A DNA stretch of 41,634 nucleotides from Azospirillaceae bacterium (GTDB lineage: Bacteria; Pseudomonadota; Alphaproteobacteria; Azospirillales; Azospirillaceae). Below are positions 3,273 to 32,600 of this stretch, one piece after another. The position numbers were made by a program, and so were the translations under genes. The stretch is from contig JANQHG010000236.1 in the NCBI GenBank assembly GCA_028277115.1, positions 1 through 41,634 of the forward strand, given 5' to 3'. The notes beneath the pieces were generated by a model. It was not told the origin of the DNA and made no database searches. It saw only the letters and a program-made list of their open reading frames with translations. How positions within the stretch are numbered: position 1 is the stretch's first letter; each line of letters opens with the position of its first letter.

Positions 3273-4189
3273 CACGGGTCGCCCCCCGCGACGGCCAGCG
3301 CGTCGTCCGGCTCCTCCTCGCCGAGATAGGCGCGGATCACCGCCGGCGTGCGCTTGATCACCTCGGGCGGTCCCTCGGCGATTTTGCAGCCGTGGTCGAG
3401 CACCACGACATGGTCGGAAATGCCCATGACCACGCTCATGTCGTGCTCGATCAACAGCACGCCGATCTGGTGGCTGTCGCGGATGAAACACAAAAGCTCG
3501 CTCAACTCGGCCGACTCGCGCGGGTTGAGCCCGGCCGCCGGCTCGTCCAGGCACAGCAACACGGGGTCGCTGCACATCGCGCGCGCGATCTCAAGCCGGC
3601 GTTGGGCGCCATAGGGCAGGTTGCCGGCCTGCCAGTCCGCGGCCTCTGTCAGCTGCATGCGCTCAAGCCAATAGCGCGCAAGCTCGACGGCCGCACGCTC
3701 GGCGCGGCGATAGATCGGCAGGCCCAACAGGCCGAACACCGAAAAGCCCGACGCCTTCATTAGCTTGTTGTGCTGGGCGACGATCAGGTTTTCCAACACG
3801 CTCATGCCGGCGAACAGGCGGATGTTCTGGAAAGTCCGGGCGACCCGTGCGTGGCGCGCGATCTTGTAGGCTTCAAGGCGCTCCAACAAGAACACGTCGC
3901 GGCCGGTGTCGAGCGCGAGCCGGCCGGTGGTCGGCGCATAAAACCCGGTCATGCAGTTGAACACCGTGGTCTTGCCGGCGCCGTTCGGGCCGATGATCGC
4001 GGTGATCTCGCGGTCGCGCGCGGTGAACGAGACGTCGCTGACCGCGACCAGGCCGCCGAAGCGCATGGTCAGATGCTCGACCGTCAGCAGGGGCCGCGGC
4101 CGGCCGGCCGCGCTGCCGGCGTCCGGCCGGGCCCCGGCCAGCCCGCGCGGCTCACCCCCGTGCGGCTCCCAGTCGTCGGGTGCGGTCAT
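3272..4189 (-). CDS. livG: Branched-chain amino acid ABC transporter ATP-binding protein LivG
   Basis: 305 residues from the ATG at 4189, which overlaps the livM stop by four bases (ATGA). The first ~35 residues are a Pro/Gly/Arg-rich extension not usual for LivG (~255 residues); the conserved domain begins at LLTVEHLTMRFGGLVAVSDV. Walker A GPNGAGKT, the LivG-type QNIRLFAGMSVLENL, YGAQRRLEIARAM in place of LSGGQ, Walker B LLCLDEPAAGLNP and LIEHDM are all present. It pairs with LivF to energise uptake. The start could lie later if the extension is not translated, but the overlap with livM supports the upstream ATG. Confidence 0.93.
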   Translation of the reverse strand: MTAPDDWEPHGGEPRGLAGARPDAGSAAGRPRPLLTVEHLTMRFGGLVAVSDVSFTARDREITAIIGPNGAGKTTVFNCMTGFYAPTTGRLALDTGRDVFLLERLEAYKIARHARVARTFQNIRLFAGMSVLENLIVAQHNKLMKASGFSVFGLLGLPIYRRAERAAVELARYWLERMQLTEAADWQAGNLPYGAQRRLEIARAMCSDPVLLCLDEPAAGLNPRESAELSELLCFIRDSHQIGVLLIEHDMSVVMGISDHVVVLDHGCKIAEGPPEVIKRTPAVIRAYLGEEEPDDALAVAGGDP

Positions 4190-5712
4190 GTCGCCTCTCC
4201 GCTGGTCGCCGCCGCGGCGCGGCCGAAGCGCCGGCGCGCCAGCGTGATCGTCGGTTCGCGATGCGAAAGCAGGCCGCGCGGCCGCCACAGCATGATCAAC
4301 ACCATCCCAGCGCCGAACGCCAGCATCCGGTACTGTTCGAGCTCGCGGAACCATTCCGGCAGCCCGATCACCACGAACGCCGCGACCACCACCCCGAGCT
4401 GGCTGCCCATGCCGCCCAGCACCACCACCGACAAGATGATCGCGGACTCGATGAAGGTAAAACTCTCCGGGCTGATGAAGCCCTGACGGGTCGCAAAGAA
4501 CGCGCCGGCAAAGCCGCCCCACATCGCGCTGATCGAAAACGCCGCGAGCTTGATGTTGGTCCGGTTGATCCCGAGCGAGGCGCAGGCGATGTCATCCTCG
4601 CGCAACGCCTCCCAGGCGCGGCCGATCGGCAACCGGCGGATCCGCACGGTGAAGAAGTTGACGATCAAGGCGAGCGCCAGGATCAGATAATACAAAAAGA
4701 TCATCCGGTGCAGCGAGCTGTAGTCAAGCCCGAACATCTGGTGAAACGCGACGTCGTCACCGCGCGGCCGCCGGATGAACTCGGCCAGCCCGAAGAAGCT
4801 CGGTCGCGGGATCCCGGCGATCCCGTCCGGCCCGCCGGTGAATTGATACCAGTTGAGCAGGATCACCCGGATGATCTCGCCGAAGCCGAGCGTCACGATC
4901 GCGAAATAGTCGCCACGCAGCCGCAGCACCGGAAACCCGAGCAACAGCCCGGCGAGCGCCGCGAACAGCCCGGCGAGCGGCAGGCAGGCCCAAAAGCTCA
5001 AATCGAAATGATAGGCCATCAACGCGTAGGAATACGCACCAACCGCATAGAACGCGACAAACCCAAGATCGAGCAGCCCCGCCAGACCGACGATTATATT
5101 GAGACCCCATCCGAGCATGATGTAGGTCAGGATCAAAATCGCGATGTCAAGGAACCGCCGGTCGGCGAACGGCAAGAAGGGCAAGAGGACGGCGAAGGTG
5201 ATCGCGATCGGCGCGAGCCAGATCGTCCACACCTGCACCTTGGCGCCGATCGCATCCATCCGCTTCTGACGCTCGGCCCGGCTCAGCGTCGAGCGGCCGG
5301 TGTAGGCGGTCCAGCCGGCGATCATGGCGACGATCAGCCCGCCGGCGACCGCGATCAGCTGCAACGGCGCGGTCGGGAAGTCGATCGCCAGGCTCGCCCC
5401 GGCGACCGCCAACGCCGCCGCCAGCACCGGCACCGGATAGCCGGCCGCGGAGAGCGACAGCCCGAACCGGCCGAGGAACACCAGCGCCACCGCGACCGCA
5501 ACCTCGACGAACCGCGTGTTGATGGCGAGGCCGCCGATTGCGATCTCGGTTCGCAGCCCGACCAGCGGCAGGGTGAACAGGAACGCGACTGCGGCGGCGA
5601 TCACCCCGTCGGCCAGCGCCGTCGCGACCGCACCGCCCAAACCGCCGCCAGTTGTGCCGCCGCGCGGCGGGCGGCGGATCGACGCCGTCGAGGCGAGGCT
5701 CGAGGTGGTCAT
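4186..5712 (-). CDS. livM: Branched-chain amino acid ABC transporter permease LivM (long form)
   Basis: 508 residues. The first ~170 residues hold extra membrane segments of the N-terminal region found in long LivM proteins (DUF3382 type). The permease core begins near LPFLPFADRRFLDIAILILTYIMLGWGLNIIVGLAGLLDLG and carries the EAALR-like loop (WEALREDDIACASLGIN) that contacts the ATPases, then FAGAFFATRQGFISPESF and a C-terminal LMLWRPRGL. It forms the membrane channel with LivH. It starts 7 bases after livH ends and overlaps livG by four bases, so one transcript is expected. Confidence 0.95.
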   Translation of the reverse strand: MTTSSLASTASIRRPPRGGTTGGGLGGAVATALADGVIAAAVAFLFTLPLVGLRTEIAIGGLAINTRFVEVAVAVALVFLGRFGLSLSAAGYPVPVLAAALAVAGASLAIDFPTAPLQLIAVAGGLIVAMIAGWTAYTGRSTLSRAERQKRMDAIGAKVQVWTIWLAPIAITFAVLLPFLPFADRRFLDIAILILTYIMLGWGLNIIVGLAGLLDLGFVAFYAVGAYSYALMAYHFDLSFWACLPLAGLFAALAGLLLGFPVLRLRGDYFAIVTLGFGEIIRVILLNWYQFTGGPDGIAGIPRPSFFGLAEFIRRPRGDDVAFHQMFGLDYSSLHRMIFLYYLILALALIVNFFTVRIRRLPIGRAWEALREDDIACASLGINRTNIKLAAFSISAMWGGFAGAFFATRQGFISPESFTFIESAIILSVVVLGGMGSQLGVVVAAFVVIGLPEWFRELEQYRMLAFGAGMVLIMLWRPRGLLSHREPTITLARRRFGRAAAATSGEAT

Positions 5713-5719
5713 CGGCGCC

Positions 5720-6637
<918 letters not shown>

Positions 6638-6766
6638 GAAGAGGTCCTTGATCCCCGTGTTCACCGCACCGGGCAGTGCGGTGTGCCGACGGCATGGGCA
6701 CGATGTTGCCTGGTTTCCGATCACCGCGGGCGAGCTTGAAAGCGGAGACCGGACGCCGGTGCGCCG

Positions 6767-6809
6767 CCGCACGCGGCCGCGTGCGGGCGCCCGCGGGTTG
6801 ACCCGCGGG
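6767..6809 (-). promoter_or_regulatory. Palindromic leader region upstream of livH
   Basis: A perfect 20-base G/C palindrome at 6767-6786 is followed by two copies of CCCGCGGG (6790-6797 and 6802-6809) separated by TTGA. They lie 130-170 bases before the livH start in an otherwise non-coding stretch (6638-6929). They could be a regulator site or leader RNA hairpins; the sequence does not decide. Confidence 0.35.
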
Positions 6810-6929
6810 ATGAATTGTGCAATGCACGGGCCAAACAAGCCGCTCGGCCATGCTCGTCGCGGACCCTAGCCCAGAGCGAAACGAGGGGGCAATGCGAAAA
6901 CGGGACCTACACGGTTTGGCGGATCCGCG

Positions 6930-7670
6930 GGCGGCGTCGGCCGGCGCCCGATCTGTGTGATCGGCAACGCCGGCACGGTGGCCAACGGCATGAACCGGGC
7001 CGACTCGATGGCGCTCGACATGCAAAAATGGATGTACATGCCGTTCGACGTGGGATGCCTGCTCGCGCGTGATTGCGAAGCACTCGAATCGGCGTTCCGG
7101 ACCACGGTTGGCTATCTCACGAAAACCTGGTGCTGTCTCTTATACCAAATCCGATTGTTTGGTTCCGATAATCCACGCCTGAGGAAGCTGCTCACCGAAC
7201 ATGTAGGTTGGGGCGATCGGCCGGCACGGTCTGCCTGTTTGCATCGCAAGGTGGGGGCCGATCGCCCCAACATTGGCGGTTCAGCTTTGCGGCCCTGTCG
7301 ATGTCGGGGCGCGGGCCTGGGACAGGGCGCTCCCGATCGACCAGGGTGCAGCCCGCGCCCCGACCGACCGGCGGTGCTCCGACAAAACGGAACGGTTCAA
7401 CCGGATTTCGTGTTAAAGCCTATGGGATGAGTGCTTTTGCATCTGCAATCGACGAGAACATACGACAGGCTCGTCACCTTGCCGACCTGATCAGCGAGAA
7501 CCAGAATCTCGAGTTATTGTCGTCAAGCCCGCTTAATGTCGTGCGTTTCCGGTTCATATCACCGGATTTTAGCGATTACGAACCATCGGACCACGATAGA
7601 GGATTTCGACCACCTCGTCGATCAGGTCGTGGCGGAGGGAGTGCTGCTTGCCGAACGGGAGTCCGCCTGA
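6930..7670 (+). pseudogene. PLP-dependent amino acid decarboxylase (DDC family) remnant, split by a small repeat element
   Basis: Two pieces of one gene flank the element at 7142-7413. The left piece (about 6930-7135) reads RRPICVIGNAGTVANG, then NRADSMALDMQKWMYMPFDVG, the region of the PLP-binding lysine, where the usual HK is QK; the ~40-50 residues normally between these motifs are missing. The right piece (7414-7670) resumes with KAYGMSAFASAIDENI, runs to LNVVRFRFISPDF in one frame, then continues in another frame as NHRTTIEDFDHLVDQVV and ends at TGA 7668-7670. The conserved NHRTT end makes the family clear. At least two internal deletions, one frame change and one insertion are visible, and the N-terminal half is absent. 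It cannot encode a working enzyme. Confidence 0.82.
7142..7413 (-). mobile_element. Small inverted-repeat element, copy A of family 2 (inside the decarboxylase pseudogene)
   Basis: The ends are ATACCAAATCCG (7142-7153) and CGGATTTCGTGT (7402-7413), near-perfect inverted repeats. The left ~55 bases and the right ~60 bases match the two halves of the 140-bp copy at 19504-19643; the extra middle holds two further inverted repeats. No transposase frame lies inside, so it resembles a non-autonomous (MITE-like) element. It interrupts a recognisable decarboxylase gene, which shows it arrived by insertion. Confidence 0.75.
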
Positions 7671-26520: not shown

Positions 26521-27165
26521 TCAGGCGGCGCCGGCCGGGCGCGGGGTGGTCTTCCACCACGCCGCGGCCAGCGCCAGGCCGGCCGCGAAGCCGGCGAGAT
26601 GGGCGCCGGGCACCGCGGGCCAGGCCGCGGTGTCGATCACCGCGCCGCCGATCGCGAGCTCGGCGGCGATCTTGACCCCGGTGCTGATCAGCGCGACCAG
26701 GAACAAAGGCCGGCCGGTGGCGCGCCACAGATCGATCAGCCCGACCGCGGCCACGGTGTTGAGCAGGCCGGACAGGCCGGCGTAGCGCTCGATCGCCGGC
26801 TCGCACGCAACCAGCCACAGCCCGACCGCGAGCGCCCCGACCAAGACGGTGACCGCAAGGCGCCCGACCCGCCCGCGGCCCGGAGCGGTTTCGTAGAGCG
26901 CGCCGAACACCAGCCACACCCCGAGGTCGGGGATCAGGTGACCGAGGTCGGTGTGGACCAGGTGACCGGTCAAAAGCCGCCACAGTTCGCCGGCCAGGAT
27001 CGCCTCGCGCTCGGTCAACAGCGGCACCCCGACCGCAGGCCCAAGCGCATAGAGACCAAGCACCAGGACCGCCAGGGTCCCGGTCAGCCACGGCACCACC
27101 GGTGGCCGGCCGGGCGGTCCGGCGGGGCGGAGCGACCCCGCCGGACAGGTTTCGACCAGGCTCAC
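26521..27165 (-). CDS. rrtA: Rhombosortase-like rhomboid-family intramembrane serine protease
   Basis: 214 residues from a GTG at 27165 that overlaps the stop of the VIT/vWA gene (GTGA). About six membrane segments. Motifs: GELWRLLTGHLVHTDLGHLIPDLG (rhomboid HxxxN region, with Asp instead of Asn), catalytic Ser S132 in YAGLSG and catalytic His H189 in PGAHLAGFAAG. The small size and sequence style match rhombosortases, which process proteins carrying a GlyGly-CTERM tail. The adjacent gene encodes such a tail, making an enzyme-substrate pair very likely. A general rhomboid protease is the alternative. Confidence 0.8.
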   Translation of the reverse strand: MSLVETCPAGSLRPAGPPGRPPVVPWLTGTLAVLVLGLYALGPAVGVPLLTEREAILAGELWRLLTGHLVHTDLGHLIPDLGVWLVFGALYETAPGRGRVGRLAVTVLVGALAVGLWLVACEPAIERYAGLSGLLNTVAAVGLIDLWRATGRPLFLVALISTGVKIAAELAIGGAVIDTAAWPAVPGAHLAGFAAGLALAAAWWKTTPRPAGAA

Positions 27166-29264
27166 GACCGGCGGGCCCGCATGCCGGCCCAGCCGAGCGC
27201 GGCCGAGGCCAACAGACCGAGCAGCCCGACGTTGCCGCCGCCGGCCCCGGCGCCACCGCCATAGCTCGGTTGGGCCGAGGCGAACGCCGGCGCCGCCTGA
27301 TCGACCCGATGCGCGACCACCGGGCCGGCCGCCCGCGCTGCCCGCGCGGCCTGTTCGTCCGCGACCCGCTCGGCGGTGGTGCGGGCAAGGCCGCGTTCGG
27401 CGAACACGTCCTCTTCGACCACCAGCATCGAGGTGTAGGGCGTGACCAGGCCGTGGGCGACCGCGAGCGCCTCGACCGCCGCGCGCCGGTCGGGGGTTTC
27501 GCCGAAGGTGTGGATTTCGGTCATCGCGGCCTCGACCCGGGCGAACGCCCACAGCCGCTCGAGCTCGGGATTGCGCGTGGCGGTCGCCGGAACGGCGAAG
27601 CGGGTGCGGTATTCGACCGGGCGGCCGGAGACCCGGCCGCGCACCGTGAGGTCCGCCATGCCGGCACCGCGGTAACGCCCGAACACCACCAGCTGCTCGC
27701 CGCGATAGATGCTGCCGATCGGGTCGGGGACCACGTCGAAGGTCTCGATGCCGTCGAGCGCGAGCGCGACGTCGTGGAACGCCTGGTGGCCGACCTTGCC
27801 GAGCGCGCCCAACAACACCCCGACGATGTCGTCAGCGGTCGACACGCCGACCGCATGGCCGTTGGTCGCCTCGGTCAGCGCGGCGAGCAGCGGCCGGTTG
27901 GCGCCGTTGCCCATGATGAAGGTGAACAGGCGGATGTCGCGTTGCCGGACCAGGTCGAGGAAGGCGCGCTGCTCGGTCTCGCCGACATTGGCGACGCCGT
28001 CGGTGACCAACAAGATCGCCGAGGTCCGGTCGGCGTCGGTGCCCTCTTGGGCAAGACGCAGCCCGTCGTAGAGGTTGGTGCCGCCGTCGGCGCCGATCTG
28101 CCCGACCAGCGCGTCGAGTTGGCGCACCACCGCCGGGGTCGCCGGGACCAGGCCGCCCGACAGGTCTTGCGCGGCGTTGTTGAACGCGATCAGGCGTACC
28201 CGGTCGCGGGCGCCAAGGCGGGCCAGCGCCTGGCGCACGCCGTCGCGCAGATGGGCGATCTTGCCGTCGCGCATCGAGCCCGAGCGGTCGAGCACGAAGG
28301 TCCAGTCGGTGCCGCGGTCGATCGGCGCCAGATCGTCGCCCGGCGTCACCACCAGCATGAAGGTGCCCTCGCCCTCGGCGTCGGGCTTGTGGGTGACCAG
28401 CTCGACCTGGCCCGGCTGACCCTCGGCAAGCCGCCAGTAGACCACGATGTCGGTGTCGAGCCGGCGCGGCGACCCGGAGATCGGGGCGGGCGAGCGCGTC
28501 GCGGCGGGCAGCGCCGCCGGCACCAGCGCGGCGTCGGCGTGATCACGCGGCCGGTCGTCGTTTGGTGTCGGCGGATCGCCCAGGGTCACGGTGAACCAGC
28601 CGTCGCCGCGGCGCCGGATCTCCGCGTCCGGGTGCGCCGGCAGGCGGACCGCCGAGACCGGGGCCGCGAGCCGCAAGGTCAGCGCGAACCGGAACCGGCC
28701 GGTGACCTGGTCGTTCATGTGCCAAAACGCATTGGCCGCTTCGTCCACATTGCCTTCGGCGAGCGGATAGACATAGCGCCCGACCCCGGTGTCGAGGCGG
28801 GCCGGCTGGATGTAGCCGAGCCGTATCCGAACCTCGTCGCCGGCGCGCACCGGCGTGACCCGGATTTCGAAGTCGCGGTGACCGTCTTGCTCGGTCAGCG
28901 CGGTGGCACGGCCGGCCGCCTTTTCCTCCTCGTAGACGGTGCGCGCTTGCTGCTTGGGCAGGACCTCGCCGGTCACCGGCCGGCCGTCGATCCAATAGGT
29001 GAACTCCGACACCGCGGCGGCCTCCGGCACCGGAAAGGCGTAGAGCGCCTCGAGATCGCGCGGGTGCGGGTTGTGGAACCGTTGCTCGACGATGGTGACG
29101 GCGTAGCCGTCTTCGACCACCACCTCGACCAGATGATCTTTGAGTTCGAGCGGCGGCACCCCGCCGCCGACCGGTGTCAACAGCCCGGCCGCGGCGACCG
29201 GCCCGGCCCAGGCGCCGAGCGCCAGCGCGCCCGCCGCGATCATCGTCATCGTTCGCATCCGCAT
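27162..29264 (-). CDS. VIT and von Willebrand factor A domain protein with GlyGly-type C-terminal anchor
   Basis: 700 residues from an ATG at 29264 (GAGGGAG upstream). Signal peptide ~1-26; VIT domain ~30-165 (VEDGYAVTIVEQRFHNPHPRDLEALYAFPVPEAAAV); vWA ~320-500 with a MIDAS metal site D326-x-S328-x-S330 (LDRSGSM) and later TDGVANVGE. The C-terminus (668-700) is a Gly-rich stretch, a hydrophobic segment and RARRS, the GlyGly-CTERM plan; no LPxTG is present. The protein should be exported, anchored, then cut or lipid-modified by the rhombosortase encoded next. It recalls the 'marine proteobacterial sortase target' family, but with a rhombosortase partner. Role at the surface unknown; adhesion or protein binding is likely. 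Confidence 0.87.
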   Translation of the reverse strand: MRMRTMTMIAAGALALGAWAGPVAAAGLLTPVGGGVPPLELKDHLVEVVVEDGYAVTIVEQRFHNPHPRDLEALYAFPVPEAAAVSEFTYWIDGRPVTGEVLPKQQARTVYEEEKAAGRATALTEQDGHRDFEIRVTPVRAGDEVRIRLGYIQPARLDTGVGRYVYPLAEGNVDEAANAFWHMNDQVTGRFRFALTLRLAAPVSAVRLPAHPDAEIRRRGDGWFTVTLGDPPTPNDDRPRDHADAALVPAALPAATRSPAPISGSPRRLDTDIVVYWRLAEGQPGQVELVTHKPDAEGEGTFMLVVTPGDDLAPIDRGTDWTFVLDRSGSMRDGKIAHLRDGVRQALARLGARDRVRLIAFNNAAQDLSGGLVPATPAVVRQLDALVGQIGADGGTNLYDGLRLAQEGTDADRTSAILLVTDGVANVGETEQRAFLDLVRQRDIRLFTFIMGNGANRPLLAALTEATNGHAVGVSTADDIVGVLLGALGKVGHQAFHDVALALDGIETFDVVPDPIGSIYRGEQLVVFGRYRGAGMADLTVRGRVSGRPVEYRTRFAVPATATRNPELERLWAFARVEAAMTEIHTFGETPDRRAAVEALAVAHGLVTPYTSMLVVEEDVFAERGLARTTAERVADEQAARAARAAGPVVAHRVDQAAPAFASAQPSYGGGAGAGGGNVGLLGLLASAALGWAGMRARRS

Positions 29265-29310: not shown

Positions 29311-29352
29311 AATGAACGATGTTCATTTGGGCGGTGAGTGAACGATGTTCAA
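29311..29352 (-). promoter_or_regulatory. Two identical palindromic operators over a candidate promoter of the VIT-rhombosortase operon
   Basis: TGAACGATGTTCA occurs at 29313-29325 (extended to a 17-base palindrome 29311-29327) and again at 29339-29351, start-to-start distance 26 bases. The second copy overlaps a minus-strand TTGAAC (29352-29347) that could be the -35; 17 bases further is a weak -10 (CAAATG) overlapping the first copy. The form is that of a TetR-type operator. No TetR gene is in the window. Confidence 0.6.
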
Positions 29353-31100: not shown

Positions 31101-32543
31101 TCAAGGCGACCGGGTCGCTCTGGGCGACCGTGGTGCTTTCGGCGACCGGGGTGCTTTGGGCGACCGAGGCGCTTTGGGCGACCGGGGTGCTTTCGGCGAC
31201 CGGGTCGCTCTGGGGGACGGGGTCGCTGCCAGGGTTTCGGCGAGCGCGTCCAAGAAGAAGTCCGCCTCGTCACGATTCAGGCACAGCGGCGGCCGGATCT
31301 TGAGGGTGTGGCCATAACGGCCGGCGGCACCGATCAGCACCCGCCGGTCACGCAGACCGTTGATCACGCTGCTGGTCAGCTCCGGATCGGGTCGGGTCGG
31401 ATCACCGTCGCGACACAGGTCGACGCCGATGAACAGCCCGGCACCCCGAACCGCGGCCACGCGCGGGTCCGTGCGCGCAAGGGCGTCCAGCCGGTCCATC
31501 AGGTGGCGACCGATCGCCTGGGCATTGGCCTGCAAACCCTCGTCCTCGATCACCTCCAACACCGCCAGACCGGCGGCGGCGGCGACCGGGTTACCGCCGA
31601 AGGTGTTGAAGTACCCGACGCCCTCGCAGAACCGGGCCAGCAACTCCGGCCGCGTCGCCACCCCGGACATCGGATAGCCGTTGGCCATCGGCTTGCCCAT
31701 GGTGACGATGTCAGGCACCACGCCGTGACGACCGAATCCCCAGAAGGCATCCCCGGTTCGGGCGAACCCGGGCTGCACCTCGTCGGCGATGAACAGGCCG
31801 CCGGCGGCTTGCATGGCGTCCACCGCCGGCGCCAGGAAGCCCGGCGGATCGGCGAACACGCCATCGCTCGAGAAGAGGGAGTCGCAGATCAGCGCGGCCG
31901 GTGCGTGGCCGCGCTGACCCAGCGTCATGATGGCTCGTTCCACGGCGGCCCGGAATCCGCCGGCGATGTCGTCGCCGTAATTCAGCGGGCCGGGGGCCGG
32001 GACCATGCAGACGTGGGACGGCGGTGTCCCGAATTTCGTGGCGGAGGGTGAGATGTCCGTCACCGCCGAGGTGTTGCCGTGGTAGGCGGTTTCGGTGACC
32101 ACGAACCCGGTGTGGCCGGTCGCCGTCATGGCGATGCGCAGGGCCAGGTCGTTGGCCTCGCTGCCGGTGCAGCCGAGCACCACGTTGGACAGGGCGTCCG
32201 GCAAGGTCGTTTTCAGGCGGTCGAGATAGTCCTCGGTCGGATGGTTGAGATAGCGGGTGTGGATGTTCAACGTCGCCACCTGCCGCGAGATCGCGGCGAC
32301 CACGCGCGGGTGGCAATGCCCGACCGAGGGGACGTTGTTGTAAAAGTCCAAAAAGCGGGTGCCGTCGGTGGCTTCGATCCAGCAGCCGCTGGCCCGGGTG
32401 ACCTCCAGGGGGCGACGGTAGAACAGGACCGAGGCGGCGCCGGCGTTGCGCTGCCGGCGGTGCAGGAGGGCGCTGTCTGCCCCCGGGTCCTGGGCCGCGT
32501 CGAAGGCGTTCATGTCCAGGATCGGGCGGGTGGTCGGGGACAT
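31101..32543 (-). CDS. Class III aminotransferase-fold PLP enzyme, probable amino-alcohol-phosphate phospho-lyase
   Basis: 480 residues from an ATG at 32543 (a TTG six codons upstream is possible). PLP lysine K284 lies in PDIVTMGKPMANGYP and D254 in FIADEVQPGF; VPSVGHCHPRVVAAI, HTRYLNHPTEDYLDRL and TGSEANDLALRIA closely follow the pattern of the AGXT2L1/AGXT2L2 group (ethanolamine-phosphate and 5-phosphohydroxylysine phospho-lyases), which release phosphate and ammonia to leave an aldehyde. The adjacent APH-fold kinase supports this over plain transamination. The catalytic domain ends near residue 440; residues 443-480 are an unusual basic hexapeptide repeat. It is followed downstream by the convergent DeoR gene. 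Confidence 0.85.
   Translation of the reverse strand: MSPTTRPILDMNAFDAAQDPGADSALLHRRQRNAGAASVLFYRRPLEVTRASGCWIEATDGTRFLDFYNNVPSVGHCHPRVVAAISRQVATLNIHTRYLNHPTEDYLDRLKTTLPDALSNVVLGCTGSEANDLALRIAMTATGHTGFVVTETAYHGNTSAVTDISPSATKFGTPPSHVCMVPAPGPLNYGDDIAGGFRAAVERAIMTLGQRGHAPAALICDSLFSSDGVFADPPGFLAPAVDAMQAAGGLFIADEVQPGFARTGDAFWGFGRHGVVPDIVTMGKPMANGYPMSGVATRPELLARFCEGVGYFNTFGGNPVAAAAGLAVLEVIEDEGLQANAQAIGRHLMDRLDALARTDPRVAAVRGAGLFIGVDLCRDGDPTRPDPELTSSVINGLRDRRVLIGAAGRYGHTLKIRPPLCLNRDEADFFLDALAETLAATPSPRATRSPKAPRSPKAPRSPKAPRSPKAPRSPRATRSP
31104..31217 (-). repeat. 18-bp tandem repeat encoding a (S-P-K/R-A-P/T-R)n tail
   Basis: Six 18-base units and a partial one encode SPRATR, four SPKAPR, SPRATR and SP at the end of the aminotransferase-fold protein (residues 443-480). 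The tail is strongly basic and unlike anything in the enzyme family. The frame runs straight through the repeat to the TGA at 31101-31103. Confidence 0.85.
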
Positions 32544-32600
32544 CGAATGATCGCTCCGCAAGGCGGGGGACCCGGCGTCTCGGGCCGGGCCAGGGGATGA

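What the first reader, a model, noticed from the sequence alone, without database searches (positions are those of the whole stretch)
26521..29264. Rhombosortase translationally coupled to its probable single substrate
A small rhomboid protease (S132/H189, LSG motif, GTG start) overlaps by four bases the gene of a VIT/vWA protein whose last 33 residues are Gly-rich stretch, hydrophobic segment and RARRS. Rhombosortase and GlyGly-CTERM pairs are known mainly from gammaproteobacteria with many substrates; a dedicated pair with a VIT/vWA protein is unusual. VIT/vWA proteins of this kind are more often linked with a sortase and LPxTG, which is absent here. The rhomboid HxxxN motif has Asp instead of Asn.
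Basis: partly seen in the sequence, partly recalled or inferred. Interest (0 to 1): 0.62.

Follow-up and report, generated by a model that had tools for sequence, protein, structure and literature searches.

The report
Protease paired with its surface-protein substrate
This is a two-gene unit in which a membrane protease very probably trims and anchors one dedicated, ligand-binding envelope protein; such pairs were already known, but this one belongs to a distinct lineage, not described in the papers I could search, that carries its own regulatory DNA sites and recurs in distantly related bacteria.

Summary
A rhomboid protease (26521-27165, minus strand, GTG start) overlaps by 4 nt the gene of a VIT/vWA protein (27162-29264) with a Gly-rich/hydrophobic/basic tail. 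The protease passes NCBI's rhombosortase model (94.2 bits, cut-off 84) and is the only rhombosortase found in the genome. Dedicated adjacent pairs, and VIT/vWA proteins with GlyGly-CTERM tails, were already described (PMC3237569), so the kind is not new.

What is new is the lineage. The only two other genomes above cut-off among 387 sampled of the same class have the same pair; so does one genome of another class. All four share the 4-nt overlap, and their proteases group together in a tree (96/89). Each pair has 2-4 copies of a palindrome, TGAACnnnGTTCA, upstream; in this 4.77-Mb genome it occurs only at these two places. A TetR-family gene is divergent from the pair in related loci; its homologue lies elsewhere in this genome. 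A fifth genome keeps TetR, operators and a truncated VIT gene.

Asp for Asn is not special (5 of 54). Rarer is Asn at the rhombosortase signature His. The genome's second VIT/vWA protein has a PEP-CTERM tail and its own exosortase. Cleavage, anchoring and repression are inferred, not shown.

The parts
26521..27165 (-). rhombosortase gene, 214 aa, GTG start; catalytic Ser132 (codon 26770-26772) and His189 (26599-26601); Asn136 (26758-26760) at the rhombosortase signature-His position; Asp80 (26926-26928) in HxxxN
   Evidence: TIGR03902 94.2 bits over cut-off 84; PF01694; AlphaFold model pLDDT 89, best PDB matches all GlpG
27162..29264 (-). VIT/vWA protein, 700 aa, probable substrate
   Evidence: PF08487 VIT aa 41-151, VWA aa 322-479; paired homologues 46-53% identical
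27162..27165 (-). 4-nt overlap (GTGA) of substrate stop and protease start
   Evidence: 4-nt overlap also in L020, L021, L073
27165..27266 (-). C-terminal sorting tail: Gly-rich stretch, hydrophobic segment, RARRS
   Evidence: not recognised by TIGR03501
29187..29264 (-). predicted N-terminal signal peptide (about 26 aa, ...GPVAAA)
   Evidence: sequence and hydropathy; no dedicated predictor was run
28812..29144 (-). VIT domain
27828..28301 (-). vWA domain with intact MIDAS residues D326, S328, S330, T396, D422
   Evidence: these residues invariant in all four paired homologues
29313..29325 (.). operator-like palindrome TGAACGATGTTCA, copy 1
   Evidence: only two exact sites in the whole genome; 0 in 100 window shuffles; same element upstream of the pair in L020, L021, L073 and of the broken gene in L089
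29339..29351 (.). operator-like palindrome TGAACGATGTTCA, copy 2 (26 bp from copy 1)

Best explanation
A two-gene operon, probably controlled by a TetR-family regulator, encodes a secreted VIT/vWA protein and its own dedicated rhombosortase. The VIT/vWA protein crosses the inner membrane by its signal peptide and is held by its C-terminal hydrophobic tail. The co-translated rhombosortase cuts the tail in or near the Gly-rich stretch, and the new C-terminus is transferred to a lipid-type anchor, as shown for VesB in V. cholerae. The protein then stays membrane-anchored, or reaches the cell surface through the type II secretion system, where its vWA metal site binds a ligand. Repression through the paired TGAACnnnGTTCA sites would switch substrate and enzyme on together. 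Shown here: gene anatomy, family membership of the protease, conserved pairing and overlap, unique operator sites, a TetR homologue, a GspD gene. Inferred: cleavage, anchor, location, repression, ligand binding.
For: Rhombosortase model above cut-off, only one in the genome. In the class sample, the three genomes above cut-off for rhombosortase are the same three that hold this VIT subfamily, each as an adjacent pair with a 4-nt overlap. A fourth pair occurs in another class. Paired proteases form one group, support 96/89, one change on the tree, 0 of 500 shuffles as low. Ser and His dyad conserved in 54/54; rhomboid fold predicted. Operator: two sites in 4.77 Mb, both here; found only at module loci among 89 fetched loci. 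TetR homologue 43% identical, E 2.4e-49, divergent beside the operators in L020, L021 and L089. GspD 496 bits over cut-off 351. Experimental precedent: PMC6219818, PMC13393428.
Against: The tail is not detected by TIGR03501. The fourth pair's tail (L073: QSTHISAGAVDPVTLLALLLGIAGPAIRRMKS) has no Gly-Gly, so the recognition signal differs or is looser. Asn136 replaces the signature His. In this genome the TetR gene is not next to the operators and has no such site near it. No cleavage, anchor or localisation data exist for these proteins.
Confidence: 0.72

Rival explanations
1. The protease is dedicated to the VIT/vWA protein, but cutting releases it from the membrane (shedding or secretion) instead of anchoring it.
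For: Rhomboids classically release substrates; in V. cholerae, GlpG-cut VesB is released to the medium and VesC is later shed (PMC6219818, PMC13393428). Rhombosortase signature His is Asn here, so the chemistry after cleavage could differ.
Against: The protease is a rhombosortase, and the studied member leads to membrane association and surface retention; VIT/vWA homologues carry other anchoring-type tails (LPXTG with sortase, PEP-CTERM with exosortase).
Confidence: 0.17
2. The protease serves several substrates in this genome, and the VIT/vWA gene is only the nearest one.
For: The GlyGly-CTERM model fails even on this tail, so other divergent tails could be missed; V. cholerae rhombosortase has six targets.
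Against: In PMC3237569 the genes are next to each other mainly where there is a single target, and apart in genomes with several; one-to-one co-occurrence in the class sample; conserved 4-nt overlap; paired proteases form their own group.
Confidence: 0.08
3. The protease is an ordinary GlpG-like rhomboid (quality control), and the coupling to the VIT/vWA gene is incidental.
For: GlpG models also hit weakly (22-26 bits); the signature His is absent.
Against: 94.2 bits to TIGR03902 over its curated cut-off versus 22-26 bits to GlpG models whose cut-offs are 250-335; the pairing is conserved across classes.
Confidence: 0.03

Closest known systems
Dedicated rhombosortase / GlyGly-CTERM pairs (Haft and Varghese 2011, PMC3237569)
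   Same: Single rhombosortase next to a single tripartite-tail substrate; VIT/vWA proteins are among the substrates shown there (Fig. 3C).
   Different: Their text lists gamma-, beta- and deltaproteobacteria, Planctomycetes and Verrucomicrobia; members here are in another lineage, have Asn at the signature His (three of four), tails outside TIGR03501, and a shared operator with a TetR-family gene.
V. cholerae RssP / VesB (PMC6219818)
   Same: Rhombosortase with Ser-His dyad; tail of Gly motif, hydrophobic segment, basic end; T2SS secretin gene present in the genome.
   Different: RssP serves six unrelated substrates encoded apart from it; the substrate here is a vWA/VIT binding protein, not a protease.
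Marine proteobacterial sortase target (TIGR03788) with class GN sortase
   Same: VIT/vWA protein followed by its own sorting enzyme; e.g. Phyllobacterium plasmid.
   Different: LPXTG and a sortase there; a rhombosortase here; TIGR03788 score 233 bits against a cut-off of 552.
VIT/vWA protein with PEP-CTERM tail and exosortase T (XrtT) in this same genome (C34)
   Same: VIT/vWA protein encoded next to its own sorting enzyme.
   Different: Only distantly related VIT/vWA protein (21-29% identity to the paired proteins), different tail, different enzyme superfamily, no TGAACnnnGTTCA site.

Membership tests
Rhombosortase (TIGR03902) | score above curated cut-off (84 bits) | tested here: met
   94.2 bits, E 7.3e-27
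Rhombosortase (TIGR03902) | catalytic Ser-His dyad and AHxxGxxxG motif | tested here: met
   S132, H189, AHLAGFAAG; Ser and His conserved in 54/54
Rhombosortase (TIGR03902) | WRxxS/T motif in loop L1 | tested here: met
   WRLLT
Rhombosortase (TIGR03902) | His at the position of GlpG Tyr205 (in virtually all rhombosortases according to PMC3237569); a typical but not universal feature of model members | tested here: not met
   Asn136; in the aligned set 40/54 have His, Asn only in the three same-class members
Rhombosortase (TIGR03902) | cleaves a GlyGly-CTERM-type tail | not testable with these tools
   needs biochemistry
GlyGly-CTERM (TIGR03501) | match to the model | tested here: not met
   no match at E 10 for tail alone or genome
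GlyGly-CTERM (TIGR03501) | tripartite tail: Gly-rich motif without Cys, hydrophobic segment, basic cluster at extreme C-terminus | tested here: met
   SYGGGAGAGGGNVGLLGLLASAALGWAGMRARRS
GlyGly-CTERM (TIGR03501) | signal peptide and no other transmembrane segment | tested here: inconclusive
   hydropathy peaks at the N-terminus and the tail, but one further 19-residue window near residue 471 scores 1.47 (inside or at the edge of the vWA domain); no dedicated predictor available
Marine proteobacterial sortase target (TIGR03788) | score above cut-off, LPXTG tail, adjacent class GN sortase | tested here: not met
   233.3 bits against 551.65; no LPXTG; the adjacent enzyme is a rhombosortase
MYXO-CTERM (TIGR03901) | invariant Cys in the signature motif | tested here: not met
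   no Cys in the tail

The most novel reading that the evidence does not exclude
A distinct, anciently separated rhombosortase lineage devoted to one VIT/vWA protein, with its own sorting signal outside GlyGly-CTERM (Gly-Gly absent in one class), an altered active-site neighbour (Asn for His), and a TetR-family regulator whose whole regulon in this genome may be this single operon.
Probability: 0.35. Interest if true: 0.55.

Novelty: new variant of a known kind. Interest (0 to 1): 0.42.

Why it matters
Rhombosortase has been studied mainly in bacteria where it handles several substrates. A unit in which enzyme, single substrate and presumed operators travel together lets cleavage, recognition and anchoring be tested with two genes in a non-pathogenic background. 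The conserved regulatory sites suggest when the system is used can be found, which no rhombosortase paper I found addresses. One genome sorting two VIT/vWA proteins by two unrelated enzymes (rhombosortase and exosortase) is also a clean natural comparison of what the tail determines.

Tried and rejected
Fusion of rhombosortase to another domain: the 900+ residue frames in the family search (L005-L008) are large rhomboid-domain proteins below the cut-off, not rhombosortases. Close relatives by peptide patterns in named genomes: four weak hits, none with a VIT neighbour. Plasmid search with the protease: nothing; with the VIT protein: only distant sortase-type homologues. Asp80 as a defining oddity: rejected, seen in 5 of 54. 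Absence of other tails in the genome: could not be established, since the model misses this one. TetR autoregulation in this genome: no site near the C67 gene. Sigma-70 promoter scan upstream: nothing found. Literature on VIT/vWA sorting targets and XrtT: no functional study found.

Full report
Observation. The protease (26521-27165, minus) starts at GTG and shares GTGA (27162-27165) with the stop of the VIT/vWA gene (27162-29264, minus). The residues named (S132, H189, LSG, HLIPD) and the tail are correct.

What the proteins are. The protease scores 94.2 bits on TIGR03902 (cut-off 84), against 22-26 bits on GlpG models, and matches Pfam Rhomboid. Its AlphaFold model (pLDDT 89, pTM 0.86) finds GlpG structures as best matches, though at moderate TM-scores of 0.55-0.62 by query length. 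It is the only rhombosortase found in a genome estimated 94% complete. The other protein has a VIT and a vWA domain. The metal-site residues D326, S328, S330, T396 and D422 are invariant in its paired homologues; calling these the MIDAS rests on my knowledge of vWA domains. Closest solved relatives by sequence are inter-alpha-trypsin inhibitor heavy chains.

Already known. Haft and Varghese 2011 (PMC3237569) described rhombosortase, listed 21 single-target genomes of which 16 have the genes adjacent or one gene apart, and showed VIT/vWA proteins carrying GlyGly-CTERM, PEP-CTERM or LPXTG tails. In V. cholerae, rhombosortase cuts VesB after the second Gly; the end receives a glycerophosphoethanolamine-containing group and the T2SS brings it to the surface (PMC6219818). 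The tail and the enzyme suffice for membrane association, with a second signal needed for outer-membrane passage (PMC13393428).

Comparison across genomes. Only 3 of 387 sampled genomes of the class exceed the rhombosortase cut-off. The same 3 hold the VIT subfamily at E <= 1e-60 in a sample of 385. Each is an adjacent pair with a 4-nt overlap. In 59 genomes of the family, only this one passes the cut-off. In a phylum-wide sample, 53 of 398 had a rhombosortase at E <= 1e-22; of the loci examined around them, one (L073, another class) had the VIT protein next to it, again with a 4-nt overlap. Thirty of these loci had only 1.5 kb of flank, so adjacency beyond that was not tested for them. On a tree of 54 rhombosortases the four VIT-linked ones form one group (96/89; one change; 0 of 500 shuffles as low); L073 is a long branch, so its exact place is less sure.

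Active site. In the alignment Ser and His are invariant (54/54). HxxxN is N in 49 and D in 5, so Asp80 is a recurring variant. The GlpG Tyr205 column, said to be His in virtually all rhombosortases (PMC3237569), is His in 40 of 54 here and Asn only in the three same-class members; L073 has His.

Tails. The three same-class tails have a Gly-containing stretch, hydrophobic segment and basic end, but neither this tail nor the full-length L020 and L021 proteins match TIGR03501. L073's tail has no Gly-Gly.

Regulation. Two copies of TGAACGATGTTCA lie 55 and 81 bp before the VIT start codon. In 4.77 Mb the pattern TGAACnnnGTTCA occurs at these two places only; a simple base-composition estimate gives about 1.2 expected in the genome, so uniqueness alone is weak, but two copies side by side upstream of this operon are not expected, and the backwards-read control pattern had a similar number of sites. 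The strength lies in recurrence: among 89 fetched loci the pattern occurs only at module loci: 4 copies in L020, 3 in L021, 2 in L073, 2 in L089 and 2 here. A TetR-family gene is divergent from the pair in L020 and L021 and beside the operators in L089. Its homologue in this genome is on C67 (43% identity, E 2.4e-49; PF13305) downstream of a purH-like gene (that name is mine from the sequence). Recognition-helix residues GYS.GT.YN.F are conserved in the three aligned. L089 keeps TetR, operators and the first part of the VIT gene; a transposase-like frame that I read as IS110-type follows, and no rhombosortase was found in the 10-kb stretch. Binding and repression are inferred.

Second VIT/vWA protein. 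On C34 the genome encodes another VIT/vWA protein with a PEP-CTERM tail (20.0 bits, cut-off 16) beside exosortase T (558.6 bits, cut-off 250). No operator is present there. The two VIT/vWA proteins are distant (21-29% across the paired proteins).

Mechanism. Best account: co-translated enzyme and substrate; signal-peptide export; tail held in the inner membrane; rhombosortase cut near the Gly stretch; transfer to a lipid-type anchor; possible T2SS passage (GspD present, 496 bits over cut-off 351). Only the genetic and family-level steps are shown here.

Verdict. Correct observation, ordinary in kind, with a new lineage, regulation and active-site variation: a new variant of a known kind.

Noticed in passing
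L019 (G000:C34:24000-34000): 3584-5719 and 5723-7288, minus strand: Second VIT/vWA protein of the same genome, with PEP-CTERM tail, next to exosortase T: two VIT/vWA proteins served by two unrelated sorting enzymes.
   Followed up: partly
window 31105-31227 (3' end of class-III aminotransferase gene 31101-32561, minus): 18-bp tandem repeat, about 7 copies, giving a repetitive (RSPKAP)n-like C-terminus on an aminotransferase; translated repeats are rich in Arg, Ser, Pro, Lys.
   Followed up: no
L089 3400-6400 (G447:C19): Module remnant: TetR gene, two operators and a VIT gene broken off near a transposase-like frame; no rhombosortase found in the stretch.
   Followed up: partly
L073 VIT protein C-terminus (about 6469-6565, minus): Rhombosortase-paired VIT/vWA protein whose tail lacks a Gly-Gly motif; a possible different recognition signal.
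   Followed up: no
L070-L072, L074, L076-L078 (family f168): Group of divergent rhombosortases, several near or below the cut-off, with Met, Cys, Ser or Ala at the signature-His position and no VIT neighbour in the stretches held; substrates not looked for.
   Followed up: no
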